From a virus: 22,253 bases of DNA. Of this stretch, positions 4,446 through 22,253 are shown one piece after another (the stretch's first letter is position 1; every line of letters starts with the position of its first letter). The stretch covers positions 1 to 22,253 of IMG/VR virus record IMGVR_UViG_3300038441_000923. One strand, written 5' to 3'. The notes beneath the pieces are model-generated. The model saw nothing but the letters and a program-made list of their open reading frames with translations. It was not told where the DNA came from and did no database searches. The position numbers and the translations under genes are program-made.

Positions 4446-4985
4446 CTACTTGCAGAATTCGCGATCGGTGAATACCGTTCGCTTATTGCCGACCATGACT
4501 ACATATTGGTCAGCATGTTCGATGGGAAGATTACCGAACTCCCCTTTGCTTGCATTCTTCCACCACCACGACCCATCCTTCATAAGACCGATGACTTCGA
4601 TGTTGTCGCCGGTAAGTTTGATGGTGGTCTTCTCGGTGGACTGCTGTTTGTCAATGTGGCGGTACGCACCGTAGAAGTCAGTGTAAGGCATACCGAAGGT
4701 TCTGGTACCGTTGACGATGACGTCGTTCTTGTTCACGCGGCAGTCTTGCGGATAACTCAGGTAGCCAGTCTTACGACTGTCCCAGCCAGCCCAGCCGATG
4801 GCCGAGAGGATGATGATGCCAACAGTCACGACCAAGAGGTAGAACCGGATCATGAACTTACGAGCACTGGCCAATACATCGTTGTGCTTCTGGACCATCT
4901 TGTCGCGTGCAGCGATACCTGGATCGATGCGAGCATCTACAGGAATCAGGTCGTTCAGTTCATCTTTGTTTTGTTCGGCGGACAT
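4446..4985 (-). CDS. Bitopic membrane protein with periplasmic domain (179 aa)
   Basis: Residues 1-44 are hydrophilic (MSAEQNKDELNDLIPVDARI...). Residues 45-69 form one transmembrane helix (FMIRFYLLVVTVGIIILSAI) flanked by basic residues on the N-terminal side. The remaining 110 residues are polar, with two Cys (in DCRVNKND and at the C-terminus, FCK) that could form a disulfide in the periplasm. The positive-inside pattern predicts N-in/C-out topology. No family is recognised. The start has an AGGAG-type SD, and the gap to the upstream gene is only 4 nt. Confidence 0.8.
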   Translation of the reverse strand: MSAEQNKDELNDLIPVDARIDPGIAARDKMVQKHNDVLASARKFMIRFYLLVVTVGIIILSAIGWAGWDSRKTGYLSYPQDCRVNKNDVIVNGTRTFGMPYTDFYGAYRHIDKQQSTEKTTIKLTGDNIEVIGLMKDGSWWWKNASKGEFGNLPIEHADQYVVMVGNKRTVFTDREFCK

Positions 4986-20151: not shown

Positions 20152-20277
20152 GGTATCCGCTCGTAGAATCGAACTACGTACCTTCCCCTTGTATCCAGAG
20201 TCACGCCGAACCCCGAAGGGATGGGCATGTTCGGAATCGAACCGAATGGGGACGCTCTACCAATGAGCTAAGCGGAT
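20152..20277 (-). tRNA. tRNA-like element with 59-nt structured insert replacing the anticodon loop
   Basis: The outer parts form a good tRNA: acceptor ATCCGCT/AGCGGAT, D arm GCTC-...-GAGC, anticodon stem TCCCC/GGGGA, variable loop AGGTA and T arm CGTAG-TTCGATT-CTACG, ending ACC. Where a 7-nt anticodon loop belongs there are 59 nt (20189-20247). These contain a second complete T arm (TTCGG-TTCGATT-CCGAA) and a hairpin CATGCC/GGCGTG with a TTCG-capped inner stem, like a shrunken second tRNA lacking a D arm. No anticodon can be assigned. It begins 7 nt after the 20285-21013 stop and is flanked 3' by CCTATT. Confidence 0.75.
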
Positions 20278-20284
20278 ATAAAAC

Positions 20285-21013
20285 TTACGAGCAACGGATG
20301 TTCGGGTTCTCGAGAACGATCTCGAGGTCGAAGAACAGCTCGGTCTTGATGCTGGACGGCATGCTGATGGACAGCAGGGCGCGCTCGGGATCTACCTTCA
20401 GATAAACGTCCTGCACACCTGGGATGCTCAGGGAGTAGTTCTGAGTAAGCTGACCTTCGACACGCTTGGTAGCACTGAGGTCGTGCGACAGCTTGATGCC
20501 GTCAGCAGTGCGGACGTTACTGATGCGAATCTCGCCGACAGCGTCGGAGAGGTCCAGCATACTGGTATCGCCCAGGCCGAATACGTTGAACTTACCATCT
20601 ACCAGCGGCAGATCTTTGGCTATCAGGCGGCGCTCGGTAGCGCTGGCGATGCGACGACCCAAGACGCGAGAATACTTGTCCATGGCCTCGCCTTGGTGGC
20701 GCATCATGCCGATCTCGAAGTCGCTCAGACCTTCCGGCTTACCGCCGCCATTATCGACCTTGTGGAGGAATCCAGCCAGGCCATTGAAACGGAAGATCAG
20801 CTGAGCCTGCTCGATGATCATGCGCTGGACGTGTGGCGCTTTGGAGTCGAGATGACCCAACGGCAGATGGTTTTTCAGGAACTCTTCTTCGGATTGCCAG
20901 GTAACGTTGCCGGCTTCGTCTTTGACGTTATAACCAGACTTACCTTCTTCGCCGGAATCGGACTTCCAGGCCAGGACGGTAACGTTCTTGTTCACCAGAT
21001 AGTTTTGAGTCAT
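20285..21013 (-). CDS. Phage protein with possible helical-hairpin domain (242 aa)
   Basis: ATG at 21011-21013; the SD is weak (AGAGAT). Residues 1-45 are beta-rich (MTQNYLVNKNVTVLAWKSDS...). Residues about 60-120 contain VQRMIIEQAQL...KYSRVLGRRI with a G/P-containing turn, resembling a two-helix domain widespread in phages (the crAss001_48-type pattern: ...RV..E...L......F ... M..Y..vL..RI). The last 110 residues are a beta-rich domain ending VLENPNIRCS. The family match is from memory. The gene is embedded in the tRNA-like array, between elements at 21046 and 20277, so it shares their transcript. Confidence 0.75.
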   Translation of the reverse strand: MTQNYLVNKNVTVLAWKSDSGEEGKSGYNVKDEAGNVTWQSEEEFLKNHLPLGHLDSKAPHVQRMIIEQAQLIFRFNGLAGFLHKVDNGGGKPEGLSDFEIGMMRHQGEAMDKYSRVLGRRIASATERRLIAKDLPLVDGKFNVFGLGDTSMLDLSDAVGEIRISNVRTADGIKLSHDLSATKRVEGQLTQNYSLSIPGVQDVYLKVDPERALLSISMPSSIKTELFFDLEIVLENPNIRCS

Positions 21014-21045: not shown

Positions 21046-21132
21046 GGGCGTTCCTCGTGGATTGGAACCACGGACCTTCGGCAAGTCGTTAAGCTACGGG
21101 GCCGATGCTCTACCATACTGAGCTAAGGAACG
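21046..21132 (-). tRNA. tRNA-like element with 18-nt anticodon loop
   Basis: Acceptor CGTTCCT/AGGAACG, D arm GCTC-AGTATGGTA-GAGC, anticodon stem TCGGC/GCCGA, variable loop AGGTC and T arm CGTGG-TTCCAAT-CCACG are all perfect, ending CCC. The loop between the anticodon-stem strands is 18 nt (21083-21100) instead of 7, so no anticodon can be read. The loop starts CCCGTAG and ends ACGACTT. A class II tRNA with a long variable arm does not fit, because no 17-nt anticodon arm can be drawn. The spacer to the next element is only 6 nt. Confidence 0.75.
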
Positions 21133-21138
21133 AGAATA

Positions 21139-21248
21139 GGGACTTCTTCGAAGAATCGAACTTCGGACCTCCACCAGGTCTGGTGAACCCGCCCATTTAA
21201 GGGACCGGGGGTTCGGGGGTGGCGCTCTGCCAACTGAGCTAAAGAAGT
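21139..21248 (-). tRNA. tRNA-like element with 42-nt hairpin insert in the anticodon arm
   Basis: A perfect tRNA frame: acceptor ACTTCTT/AAGAAGT, D arm GCTC-...-GAGC, anticodon stem CCACC/GGTGG, variable loop AGGTC and T arm CGAAG-TTCGATT-CTTCG, ending CCC then TATTC. The anticodon loop is replaced by 42 nt (21176-21217) that form an extended arm: a 6-bp stem GAACCC/GGGTTC enclosing CCC-TTAAAT-GGG, with a single-stranded ACCAGACCT on the 3' side. There is no anticodon. The insert is too short for a group I or II intron. Confidence 0.75.
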
Positions 21249-21266: not shown

Positions 21267-21342
21267 GGGAGCGCTGACTAGAATCGAACTAGTGACCTAC
21301 GCCAAGTTGGCCTTATGCTCTAACCAACTGAGCTAATGGGCC
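21267..21342 (-). tRNA. Half-swapped tRNA-like segment E (partner of 21349-21421)
   Basis: The D half begins GGCCCAT-TA-GCTC...GAGC-A-TAAGG; the T half is GGCGT-AGGTC-ACTAG-TTCGATT-CTAGT-CAGCGCT ending CCC. Its own acceptor strands (GGCCCAT and CAGCGCT) cannot pair, nor can its anticodon-stem strands (TAAGG and GGCGT). Each strand pairs perfectly with the neighbouring segment instead: GGCCCAT with ATGGGCC, TAAGG with CCTTA, CAGCGCT with AGCGCTG, GGCGT with ACGCC. Read together with 21349-21421, two complete tRNA bodies result, joined through their anticodon stems. Confidence 0.75.
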
Positions 21343-21348
21343 TCGGTG

Positions 21349-21421
21349 GGTGGCCCATGCCGGATTTGAACCGGCGACCTTAAGGGAGGGGCGTCGCTCT
21401 ACCAAACTGAGCTACAGCGCT
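21349..21421 (-). tRNA. Half-swapped tRNA-like segment F (partner of 21267-21342)
   Basis: The D half is AGCGCTG-TA-GCTC...GAGC-G-ACGCC; the T half is CCTTA-AGGTC-GCCGG-TTCAAAT-CCGGC-ATGGGCC ending ACC. The two anticodon-stem strands are only 4 nt apart (CCTC) and cannot pair with each other, and the acceptor strands do not match. Both match segment E as described there. In the joint fold the second tRNA (GGCCCAT...ATGGGCC) is in permuted order, 3' half before 5' half, with its acceptor stem closed by a 9-nt linker (21343-21351). Confidence 0.75.
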
Positions 21422-21444: not shown

Positions 21445-21516
21445 GGTAACTCTGGGAGGGACTCGAACCCCCGACCTTCCTCACGTTTGTGCGTCTACCA
21501 ATTCCGCCATTGGCCG
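21445..21516 (-). tRNA. Half-swapped tRNA-like segment G (partner of 21521-21588)
   Basis: The D half is CGGCCAA-TG-GCGGAATTGGTAGACGC-A-CAAAC, with a Leu-type D arm. The T half is GAGGA-AGGTC-GGGGG-TTCGAGT-CCCTC-C-CAGAGTT ending ACC and CCTATT. Its own acceptor strands do not pair. CGGCCAA pairs perfectly with TTGGCCG, and CAGAGTT with AACTCTG, of segment H; GAGGA pairs with TCCTC, and CAAAC pairs at 4 of 5 positions with GTTTA. Only GT separates the two anticodon strands, so there is no anticodon. One extra C lies between the T arm and the acceptor. Confidence 0.7.
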
Positions 21517-21520
21517 ATAG

Positions 21521-21588
21521 TGCCGGCCAAGCAGGACTCGAACCTGCAATCGTAAACGAGGACACTCTACCAGCTGAGCTACAGAGTT
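21521..21588 (-). tRNA. Half-swapped tRNA-like segment H (partner of 21445-21516)
   Basis: The D half is AACTCTG-TA-GCTC-AGCTGGTA-GAGT-G-TCCTC and the T half is GTTTA-CGATT-GCAGG-TTCGAGT-CCTGC-TTGGCCG. The two anticodon-stem strands abut with no nucleotide between them. The acceptor strands AACTCTG and TTGGCCG do not pair, but each pairs perfectly with segment G. The linker to G is 7 nt (GCACTAT), which closes the second acceptor stem as a hairpin loop. Confidence 0.7.
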
Positions 21589-21595
21589 ATTGCTA

Positions 21596-21728
21596 GGGAG
21601 TTCCAGCTGGAATCGAACCAGCGACAACCGCCACGTTGGTGCCTGACCTTTGGCATGCCCGGGTTAGGGGCCGTCCCGACGCTGGGACGGGTCTAAGGCG
21701 GTACTCTACCAGACTGAGTTATGGAACT
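21596..21728 (-). tRNA. tRNA-like element with 64-nt structured insert in the anticodon arm
   Basis: The tRNA frame is perfect: acceptor AGTTCCA/TGGAACT, D arm ACTC-...-GAGT, anticodon stem CCGCC/GGCGG, variable loop TTGTC and T arm GCTGG-TTCGATT-CCAGC, ending CCC. Between the anticodon-stem strands are 64 nt (21633-21696). They can fold into a 7-bp hairpin CCGTCCC/GGGACGG flanked by TTAG/CTAA, and a second hairpin TGCC-AAAGGTCA-GGCA that resembles a D arm. The segment before the 3' anticodon strand reads CCAACGT. No anticodon is assignable. Confidence 0.75.
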
Positions 21729-21734
21729 ACAAAA

Positions 21735-21808
21735 TGGGGTGAAGCCGGGAATCGAACCCTGGTCTCACGGTTCACAGCCGTGCGCTCTACCACTGAGCTA
21801 GCAACACC
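21735..21808 (-). tRNA. tRNA-His (GTG)
   Basis: A normal 7-nt anticodon loop CTGTGAA on a perfect CACGG/CCGTG stem (anticodon at 21773-21775), D arm GCTC-AGTGGTA-GAGC and T loop TTCGATT. An extra 5' G opposite C73, the His identity element, and an encoded CCA are present. The acceptor stem is imperfect: two T-T mismatches and about one nucleotide short between T arm and CCA. It may be a weak or decaying gene despite its correct identity features. Confidence 0.8.
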
Positions 21809-22184: not shown

Positions 22185-22253
22185 TGGCTCCGAGACCTGG
22201 ATTCGAACCAGGGACCAACAAGTTAACAGCCTGCTGCTCTACCGACTGAGCTA
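22185..22253 (-). tRNA. tRNA-Asn (GTT), 5' end outside window
   Basis: D arm GCTC-AGTCGGTA-GAGC, anticodon loop CTGTTAA (anticodon GTT at 22225-22227) on a GCAGG/CTTGT stem with G-T pairs, variable loop TGGTC, T arm CCTGG-TTCGAAT-CCAGG, acceptor 3' strand TCTCGGA, discriminator G and an encoded CCA. The 5' acceptor strand lies beyond the right edge. This is an ordinary tRNA, useful as an in-window control for the aberrant ones. Confidence 0.93.

What the first reader, a model, noticed from the sequence alone, without database searches (positions are those of the whole stretch)
21267..21421. Two adjacent tRNAs have reciprocally swapped 3' halves, nesting a permuted tRNA inside another
Segment F carries the 5' half of tRNA 1 and the 3' half of tRNA 2; segment E carries the 5' half of tRNA 2 and the 3' half of tRNA 1. 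Both 7-bp acceptor stems (AGCGCTG/CAGCGCT and GGCCCAT/ATGGGCC) and both 5-bp anticodon stems (ACGCC/GGCGT and TAAGG/CCTTA) are perfect only across the segments: 24 base pairs that cannot arise by chance. The RNA would be a rod of two tRNA bodies joined at the anticodon stems through a CCTC / CCAACTT internal loop, with one acceptor closed by a 9-nt linker. Permuted and split tRNAs are known from algae and archaea; I know of no such nested pair in a phage.
Basis: seen in the sequence. Interest (0 to 1): 0.92.

Follow-up and report, generated by a model that had tools for sequence, protein, structure and literature searches.

The report
Phage anticodon-less nested tRNA mimics
A bacterial virus carries a small RNA in which one tRNA-shaped body, cut open and re-closed, is built into the anticodon end of another; it belongs to a family of six tRNA look-alikes that cannot read codons and probably act as Y-RNA-like tethers or decoys for tRNA-binding proteins.

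Summary
On the minus strand, window 21270-21421 pairs as two tRNA bodies with swapped halves: 24 of 24 acceptor and anticodon-stem pairs form across the segments, against 8 of 24 within them. Related phages keep every pair, with 8 compensated pairs, six of them in cross-segment helices. It is not unique. A second nested pair lies next to it (21448-21588), and four neighbouring tRNAs have the anticodon loop replaced by hairpin modules. All six share an invariant A-C four and three bases before the 3' anticodon strand (17/17; P about 5e-6) and end in N-CC-TA (five of six NCCTATT), not CCA. Two spliced, decoding tRNAs are unlikely: 11 loop bases must serve two loops, only 2 in the second pair; no bulge-helix-bulge can form; one relative has a 4-nt linker. 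The inner body (T-arm, capped acceptor, D-arm) has the architecture of the tRNA-like domain of bacterial Y RNAs (YrlA; 37-41 bits, below the 69-bit cut-off). The Y-RNA Ro site (AAUGC/CUUG) is not conserved, and no Ro60 gene was found in the DNA held. Best reading: a family of anticodon-less, Y-RNA-like tRNA mimics. Its function is inferred, not shown.

The parts
21270..21421 (-). Unit AB (the finding): outer tRNA body (acceptor AGCGCTG/CAGCGCT, anticodon stem ACGCC/GGCGT) whose anticodon end carries a permuted, capped inner tRNA body
   Evidence: cross-segment compensatory changes in L004 and L008
21317..21375 (-). Inner module of AB: T-arm, acceptor closed by 9-nt linker (4 nt in L004), D-arm; YrlA-like architecture
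   Evidence: 30.1 bits alone; 39.1 bits with flanking stems, 21293-21397
21381..21394 (-). 5' strand of AB junction: ACGCC-CCTC-CCTTA
21299..21315 (-). 3' strand of AB junction: TAAGG-CCAACTT-GGCGT, with the invariant AC at -4,-3
21448..21588 (-). Unit FG: second nested pair. Outer acceptor AACTCTG/CAGAGTT, outer anticodon stem TCCTC/GAGGA, inner acceptor CGGCCAA/TTGGCCG closed by a 7-nt linker; only 2 loop nt at the junction
   Evidence: inner module 21491-21547
21599..21728 (-). Unit E: tRNA body with about 64-nt insert in the anticodon loop, junction TTA..CCAACGT
21142..21248 (-). Unit D: tRNA body with 42-nt anticodon region forming a hairpin; acceptor, anticodon stem and insert helix show compensatory changes in L004
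21049..21132 (-). Unit C: tRNA body with an 18-nt anticodon region, CC-(CGT AGCTTA ACG)-ACTT; insert helix CGT/ACG to CTT/AAG in L004
20155..20277 (-). Unit I: tRNA body whose insert is a T-arm plus a capped acceptor-like hairpin (CATGCC..GGCGTG); lies downstream of the 242-aa gene
21738..21807 (-). Ordinary tRNA-His (GTG) in the same array, followed by CCA (contrast)
22188..22253 (-). Ordinary tRNA-Asn (GTT), cut by window end (contrast)
20285..21013 (-). 242-aa gene just downstream of unit C (crAss001_48-related domain); used to find relatives L004 and L008

Best explanation
The finding is one member of a six-member family of phage noncoding RNAs that are tRNA mimics without an anticodon. 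Each keeps the acceptor stem, D-arm, T-arm and anticodon stem of a tRNA. The anticodon loop is replaced by an internal loop with an invariant AC-N-N-G (the G begins the 3' anticodon strand) plus a variable distal module. In AB (and FG) that module is a second tRNA body, running T-arm, capped acceptor, D-arm, as in the tRNA-like domain of bacterial Y RNAs (YrlA). Mechanism: the RNA is cut from the tRNA array like a tRNA at its outer ends and stays as an uncut rod with two tRNA elbows and one free acceptor. It works as a Y-RNA-like tether or decoy: the internal loop holds a protein, and the tRNA bodies engage tRNA-binding enzymes or host tRNA-attacking effectors that cannot cleave it because it has no anticodon loop. 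Shown: the pairing, its conservation by compensatory change, the family, the motif, the lack of an anticodon and of CCA, the YrlA-like module. Inferred: processing at the outer ends, protein binding, tether or decoy role.
For: Cross-segment covariation and energetics. Compensatory changes also in units C, D and I, including insert helices and acceptors. AC invariant at -4,-3 in 17/17 unit sequences while -2 and -5 vary freely. Junctions offer only 11 loop nt (AB) or 2 nt (FG) for two loops, and the linker is 4 nt in L004. The inner module hits YrlA at 37-41 bits in the window and all relatives, 30 for the module alone. For comparison: Ro-gene-adjacent phage Y RNAs without the full Ro site score 32-36 bits, those with it mostly 48-65, and few ordinary tandem tRNAs reach even 26-30. 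A natural tRNA/Y-RNA fusion at the anticodon stem exists in two spirochaete genomes, in one of them between rsr and rtcB. YrlA is reported not to be a substrate of an anticodon nuclease and was proposed as its competitive inhibitor (PMC7790460).
Against: No expression, processing or binding data exist for any of these RNAs. The conserved Y-RNA Ro site (GNCGAAUGC / CUYGUCGNC) is not present, so the Y-RNA link rests on the tRNA-like module, which any permuted tRNA would share. No Ro60 gene in the held DNA, so the binding partner is unknown. Relatives number only three genome types. The alternative pairing of the inner D-loop AGTTGG with CCAACT seen by RNAalifold could explain part of the loop conservation in AB.
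Confidence: 0.55

Rival explanations
1. A true Y RNA set: the AC-NN-G internal loop is a diverged Ro60-binding site and a Ro60 protein (host, or encoded in an unsequenced part of the phage) is tethered to PNPase or another enzyme by these RNAs.
For: YrlA hits; ACUUG in AB and C matches the 3' Ro strand of some Y RNAs (L164, L168, L182); many phages with tRNA arrays carry both Ro60 and YrlA.
Against: The 5' AAUGC strand is absent; the motif is ACACG, ACCTG, ACGTG, ACATG or ACAAG in most units, whereas Y RNAs beside rsr keep C-U-Y-G far more than A-C; no Ro60 by a 9-sequence profile in the 74-kb relative, the 32-kb relative or the window; below Rfam's gathering score.
Confidence: 0.2
2. Nested splicing: the outer genes are valine tRNAs (anticodon NAC left by AC at 35-36) interrupted between positions 33 and 34; excision of the insert gives tRNA-Val, and the inner permuted body is the intron, possibly circularised into a second tRNA.
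For: Invariant A35-C36 in all six units; units E and I would give plausible loops (TTAACGT, ATTACAA).
Against: C at 33 in AB and C and in most D copies, pyrimidine at 37 in AB and D; position 34 drifts between orthologues (D: G/U/A; AB: A/C) and is often A, which bacterial Val tRNAs do not use (general knowledge); no bulge-helix-bulge possible; inner body left with 4 or fewer loop nt; no RNA ligase among 64 ORFs scanned.
Confidence: 0.05
3. Decayed tRNA genes: ordinary tRNAs whose halves were shuffled by recombination and are drifting.
For: Anticodons lost; inserts vary in length; unit E and tRNA-His are missing from L004.
Against: Compensatory changes keep acceptors, anticodon stems and insert helices in AB, C, D and I; no broken pair among 168 cells in AB; shared loop motif and 3' tail.
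Confidence: 0.03
4. A valyl-tRNA synthetase or other synthetase mimic: the A35-C36-like bases in the internal loop are read by ValRS as in plant-virus tRNA-like structures, so the RNA is charged or sequesters the enzyme.
For: AC invariant at the positions that, from general knowledge, are the main ValRS identity bases; tRNA bodies intact.
Against: N73 is C in four units; CCA not encoded; the internal loop is split by a helix, not a 7-nt loop.
Confidence: 0.07

Closest known systems
Bacterial Y RNA YrlA (Rfam RF02553), tRNA-like domain
   Same: T-arm, acceptor stem closed by a short loop, D-arm, in that order on a basal stem; found in phage tRNA arrays; one strand of the junction resembles ACUUG
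   Different: Basal stem here is the anticodon stem of a complete outer tRNA; Ro-site consensus not kept; no Ro60 found; scores 37-41 bits against a 69-bit cut-off
tRNA/Y-RNA fusions of Spirochaetes (L164, L185; the L164 one lies between rsr and rtcB)
   Same: Intact tRNA acceptor, D-arm and T-arm with a Y-RNA stem in place of the anticodon loop; no encoded CCA
   Different: There the Ro stem is capped and carries AAUGC/ACUUG; no second tRNA body
Permuted tRNA genes of red/green algae and Thermofilum (literature knowledge)
   Same: 3' half precedes 5' half, joined through the acceptor ends
   Different: Those have a bulge-helix-bulge, leader and trailer and a normal anticodon after processing; none of these is present here
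Archaeal split tRNAs and tRNA introns (literature knowledge)
   Same: Insert or joining point in the anticodon loop
   Different: No BHB, no restored anticodon loop, bacterial-type tRNA bodies

Membership tests
YrlA / bacterial Y RNA | tRNA-like domain: T-arm, capped acceptor, D-arm | tested here: met
   AB and FG by sequence; YrlA hits on AB in the window and all relatives
YrlA / bacterial Y RNA | Ro60-binding basal stem GNCGAAUGC.../...CUUGUCGNC | tested here: not met
   5' AAUGC absent in all six units; 3' strand AC-NN-G only partly like the Y RNAs near rsr
YrlA / bacterial Y RNA | Ro60 (TROVE/vWA) gene in the genome | tested here: inconclusive
   None in window, 74-kb and 32-kb relatives by a 9-sequence profile, but no genome is complete and the host is unknown
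YrlA / bacterial Y RNA | Rfam gathering score (69 bits) | tested here: not met
   37-41 bits; genuine phage Y RNAs next to rsr also fall below it, mostly 48-65 bits
Permuted tRNA | 3' half upstream of 5' half with pairing acceptor | tested here: met
   Inner body of AB with 3 doubly compensated acceptor pairs
Permuted tRNA | Bulge-helix-bulge splice motif at the junction | tested here: not met
   CCUC and CCAACUU contain no G; no 4-bp helix can form (sequence)
Permuted tRNA | Normal 7-nt anticodon loop after processing | tested here: not met
   11 loop nt in AB and 2 nt in FG for two loops; linker 4 nt in L004
Decoding tRNA | U33 and purine 37 around a defined anticodon | tested here: not met
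   C33 and U37 in AB and C of the window; no contiguous anticodon loop
Decoding tRNA | Encoded CCA as in the same array's normal tRNAs | tested here: not met
   N-CC-TA follows every altered tRNA, NCCTATT in all but unit E; Ile, Asp, Tyr, Asn, His are followed by CCA
Splicing-dependent tRNA | RNA ligase / splicing endonuclease available | tested here: inconclusive
   No RNA ligase or RtcB among 64 ORFs of the 74-kb relative; host unknown

The most novel reading that the evidence does not exclude
A new class of phage noncoding RNA: tRNA bodies with a common protein-binding internal loop in place of the anticodon loop, two of which carry a second, capped tRNA body, used to outcompete or shield against tRNA-targeting defence. 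Such D-T-D-T arrangements could also be intermediates showing how Y RNAs arose from two adjacent tRNA genes exchanging pairing partners.
Probability: 0.3. Interest if true: 0.88.

Novelty: new variant of a known kind. Interest (0 to 1): 0.74.

Why it matters
It shows that phage tRNA arrays hold conserved RNAs that look like tRNAs but cannot decode, and that tRNA finders miss or mislabel (ARAGORN reports one of six, with an undefined anticodon). If they act as decoys or tethers, they add an RNA-only layer to the contest over tRNAs between phages and bacteria. The D-T-D-T order also gives a concrete, testable route from two neighbouring tRNA genes to a Y RNA.

Tried and rejected
Artefact or assembly error: rejected, since independent contigs L002, L004 and L008 carry it with covariation. 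Rfam at gathering threshold: only ordinary tRNA hits. Homologues in 50,697 named phages by DNA: the rows shown are ordinary tRNAs. Search for distant relatives through the 242-aa gene: no further genomes. Identifying the 553-aa window protein as Ro60: rejected, as it is a widespread phage family (phrog_1735) with no Ro60 signal. PF05731 through the genome search missed a real rsr in L164, so its negatives were not used alone; a profile of 9 Ro60 proteins replaced it. I first took ACUUG as a clean Ro60 site; Y RNAs next to rsr in other phages showed the core there is C-U-Y-G with 5' AAUGC, so I downgraded that claim. In one search the printed 'anticodon' rows used the wrong segment index (variable loop instead of 3' anticodon strand); the anticodon-stem comparisons for C, D and I were read from the sequences instead.

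Full report
OBSERVATION. The tRNA array is on the minus strand. From 21421 down to 21270 the RNA reads AGCGCTG-TA-GCTC..GAGC-G-ACGCC-CCTC-CCTTA-AGGTC-[T-arm]-ATGGGCC-ACCCACCGA-GGCCCAT-TA-GCTC..GAGC-A-TAAGG-CCAACTT-GGCGT-AGGTC-[T-arm]-CAGCGCT. All 24 acceptor and anticodon-stem pairs form across the two segments; within segments the counts are 3/7, 4/7, 1/5 and 0/5.

CONSERVATION. The gene just downstream (242 aa) led to three genome types in IMG/VR: L002 (nearly identical), L004 = L005 = L007 (76% protein identity) and L008 (68%). All carry the structure. On the alignment of four sequences all 168 pair cells are standard pairs; 8 of 42 pairs have changes on both sides, none or one when partners are slid. 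Examples: outer acceptor G-C to A-U; outer anticodon stem ACGCC/GGCGT to TCGTC/GACGA in L004; inner acceptor GGCCCAT/ATGGGCC to GACCCAT/ATGGGTC in L008 and GGGTGAT/ATCGCCC in L004, where the linker is only GTAT. L002 shows a G-U at the position that is A-U in L008. The inner anticodon helix TAAGG/CCTTA never varies, so it is untested, and RNAalifold prefers a competing pairing of the inner D-loop with CCAACT.

A FAMILY OF SIX. A second nested pair, FG (21448-21588), has outer acceptor AACTCTG/CAGAGTT and inner acceptor CGGCCAA/TTGGCCG with a 7-nt linker. Units E, D, C and I (21599-21728, 21142-21248, 21049-21132, 20155-20277) have intact tRNA bodies with inserts of 11 to about 60 nt in the anticodon loop. 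Unit C folds at minimum energy into exactly the tRNA body with a 2x4 internal loop and a 3-bp hairpin. Compensatory changes occur in the acceptors of D and I and in the insert helices of C (CGT/ACG to CTT/AAG) and D (GAACCC/GGGTTC to GAGCCT/AGGCTC). In the 17 unit sequences from three genome types the loop bases four and three before the 3' anticodon strand are always A and C, while their neighbours vary; six unrelated 8-mers would share such a dinucleotide about 5 times in a million. Every unit has T at -1 and ends N73-CC-TA (NCCTATT in all but E); the array's normal Ile, Asp, Tyr, Asn and His tRNAs are followed by CCA.

WHY NOT SPLICED tRNAs. Two 7-nt anticodon loops need 14 nt; the junction of AB has 11 and that of FG 2. 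The strands CCUC and CCAACUU contain no G, so the central helix of a bulge-helix-bulge cannot form. If the A-C pair were A35-C36 of a valine anticodon, position 33 would be C in about half of the unit sequences and position 34 would drift between orthologues. No RNA ligase or RtcB appeared among 64 ORFs of the 74-kb relative, although that genome is incomplete and the host unknown.

RESEMBLANCE TO Y RNAs. Rfam's YrlA model matches the inner body with its flanking stems (21293-21397) at 39.1 bits, 37-41 in the relatives; the inner body alone gives 30.1. In arrays used as calibration, Y RNAs next to Ro60 genes in phages mostly scored 48-65 when they keep the Ro site, and 36.1 and 32.0 in Mycobacterium phage Essence and in L170; ordinary tandem tRNAs rarely reached 26-30. 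So the module has YrlA architecture. The second defining part fails: Y RNAs found beside rsr among 80 phage loci have a 5' strand ..GNCGAAUGC.. and a 3' strand ..CUYGUCGNC, and these phage units lack the 5' part and keep A-C rather than C-U-Y-G. A profile from nine Ro60 proteins found no Ro60 in the window, the 74-kb relative or the 32-kb relative. I therefore do not file these RNAs as Y RNAs; they may work like them.

A PRECEDENT. In a Spirochaetia genome (L164, 4845-4961) and a second one of the same phylum (L185) a tRNA with intact acceptor, D-arm and T-arm has a capped Y-RNA Ro stem (ACUUG-UCG..CGA-AUGC) in place of its anticodon loop; in L164 it lies between rsr and rtcB in the RNA-repair operon. 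Joining a tRNA and a Y RNA at the anticodon stem is thus a natural design, though in that case without a second tRNA body.

MECHANISM. Most likely the array transcript is trimmed at the outer ends as for a tRNA, leaving rods with one (C, D, E, I) or two (AB, FG) tRNA bodies and no anticodon. The common AC-NN-G internal loop is the best candidate for a protein site, and the tRNA bodies for contact with tRNA enzymes or effectors. For YrlA, published work says its tRNA-like domain is not cut by an anticodon nuclease and may inhibit it competitively (PMC7790460). The same role for a phage RNA is plausible but untested. Alternatives are a true Y RNA with an unseen Ro60 and a synthetase mimic.

KNOWN WORK. 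YrlA's tRNA mimicry and its tether role between Rsr and PNPase are described (PMC8394870); Ro60/TROVE proteins and Y RNAs in phages are mentioned (PMC7824862, PMC7765460, PMC12282133). Searches of the held library for permuted tRNAs in phages found no case like this in the titles, abstracts and passages seen; most subscription papers are not held.

Noticed in passing
L164:4845-4961 and L185 (Spirochaetes genomes): tRNA/Y-RNA fusion: intact tRNA body with a capped Ro-binding stem in place of the anticodon loop; in L164 it lies between rsr and rtcB, after a first Y RNA (4731-4836).
   Followed up: partly
window:21815-22130 (minus): About 300 nt of noncoding DNA conserved at about 83% identity in L004, no Rfam match at E<=1, ending in a strong hairpin CCTGGGG..CCCCAGG; folding energy not unusual (z -0.6).
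   Followed up: partly
L182:340-450 (minus) and just downstream: Phage contig with tandem YrlA-like RNAs (44 bits for the first) inside a tRNA array, with ACUUG at the basal stem.
   Followed up: partly
L196-L275: 80 viral contigs encode Ro60-like proteins, many beside YrlA RNAs in tRNA arrays: a large set for defining the phage Ro site.
   Followed up: partly
L179:6970-7103: A phage tRNA-Pro (TGG) that seems to carry an insert of about 65 nt in the anticodon loop, too small for a self-splicing intron.
   Followed up: no
L033:10014-11792 (74-kb relative): 592-aa protein with a complete Ser/Thr kinase domain, a kinase C-terminal domain and a Myosin_TH1-like region, eukaryote-like for a phage; the 74-kb contig may not be purely phage.
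   Followed up: no
window and relatives, after every altered tRNA: Conserved N-CC-TATT tail instead of CCA (unit E has CCCTAGC); could be a processing signal.
   Followed up: partly
L004:4483-4759: A protein-coding ORF is inserted between units AB and D in this relative, and unit E and tRNA-His are missing there: the cluster is modular.
   Followed up: no
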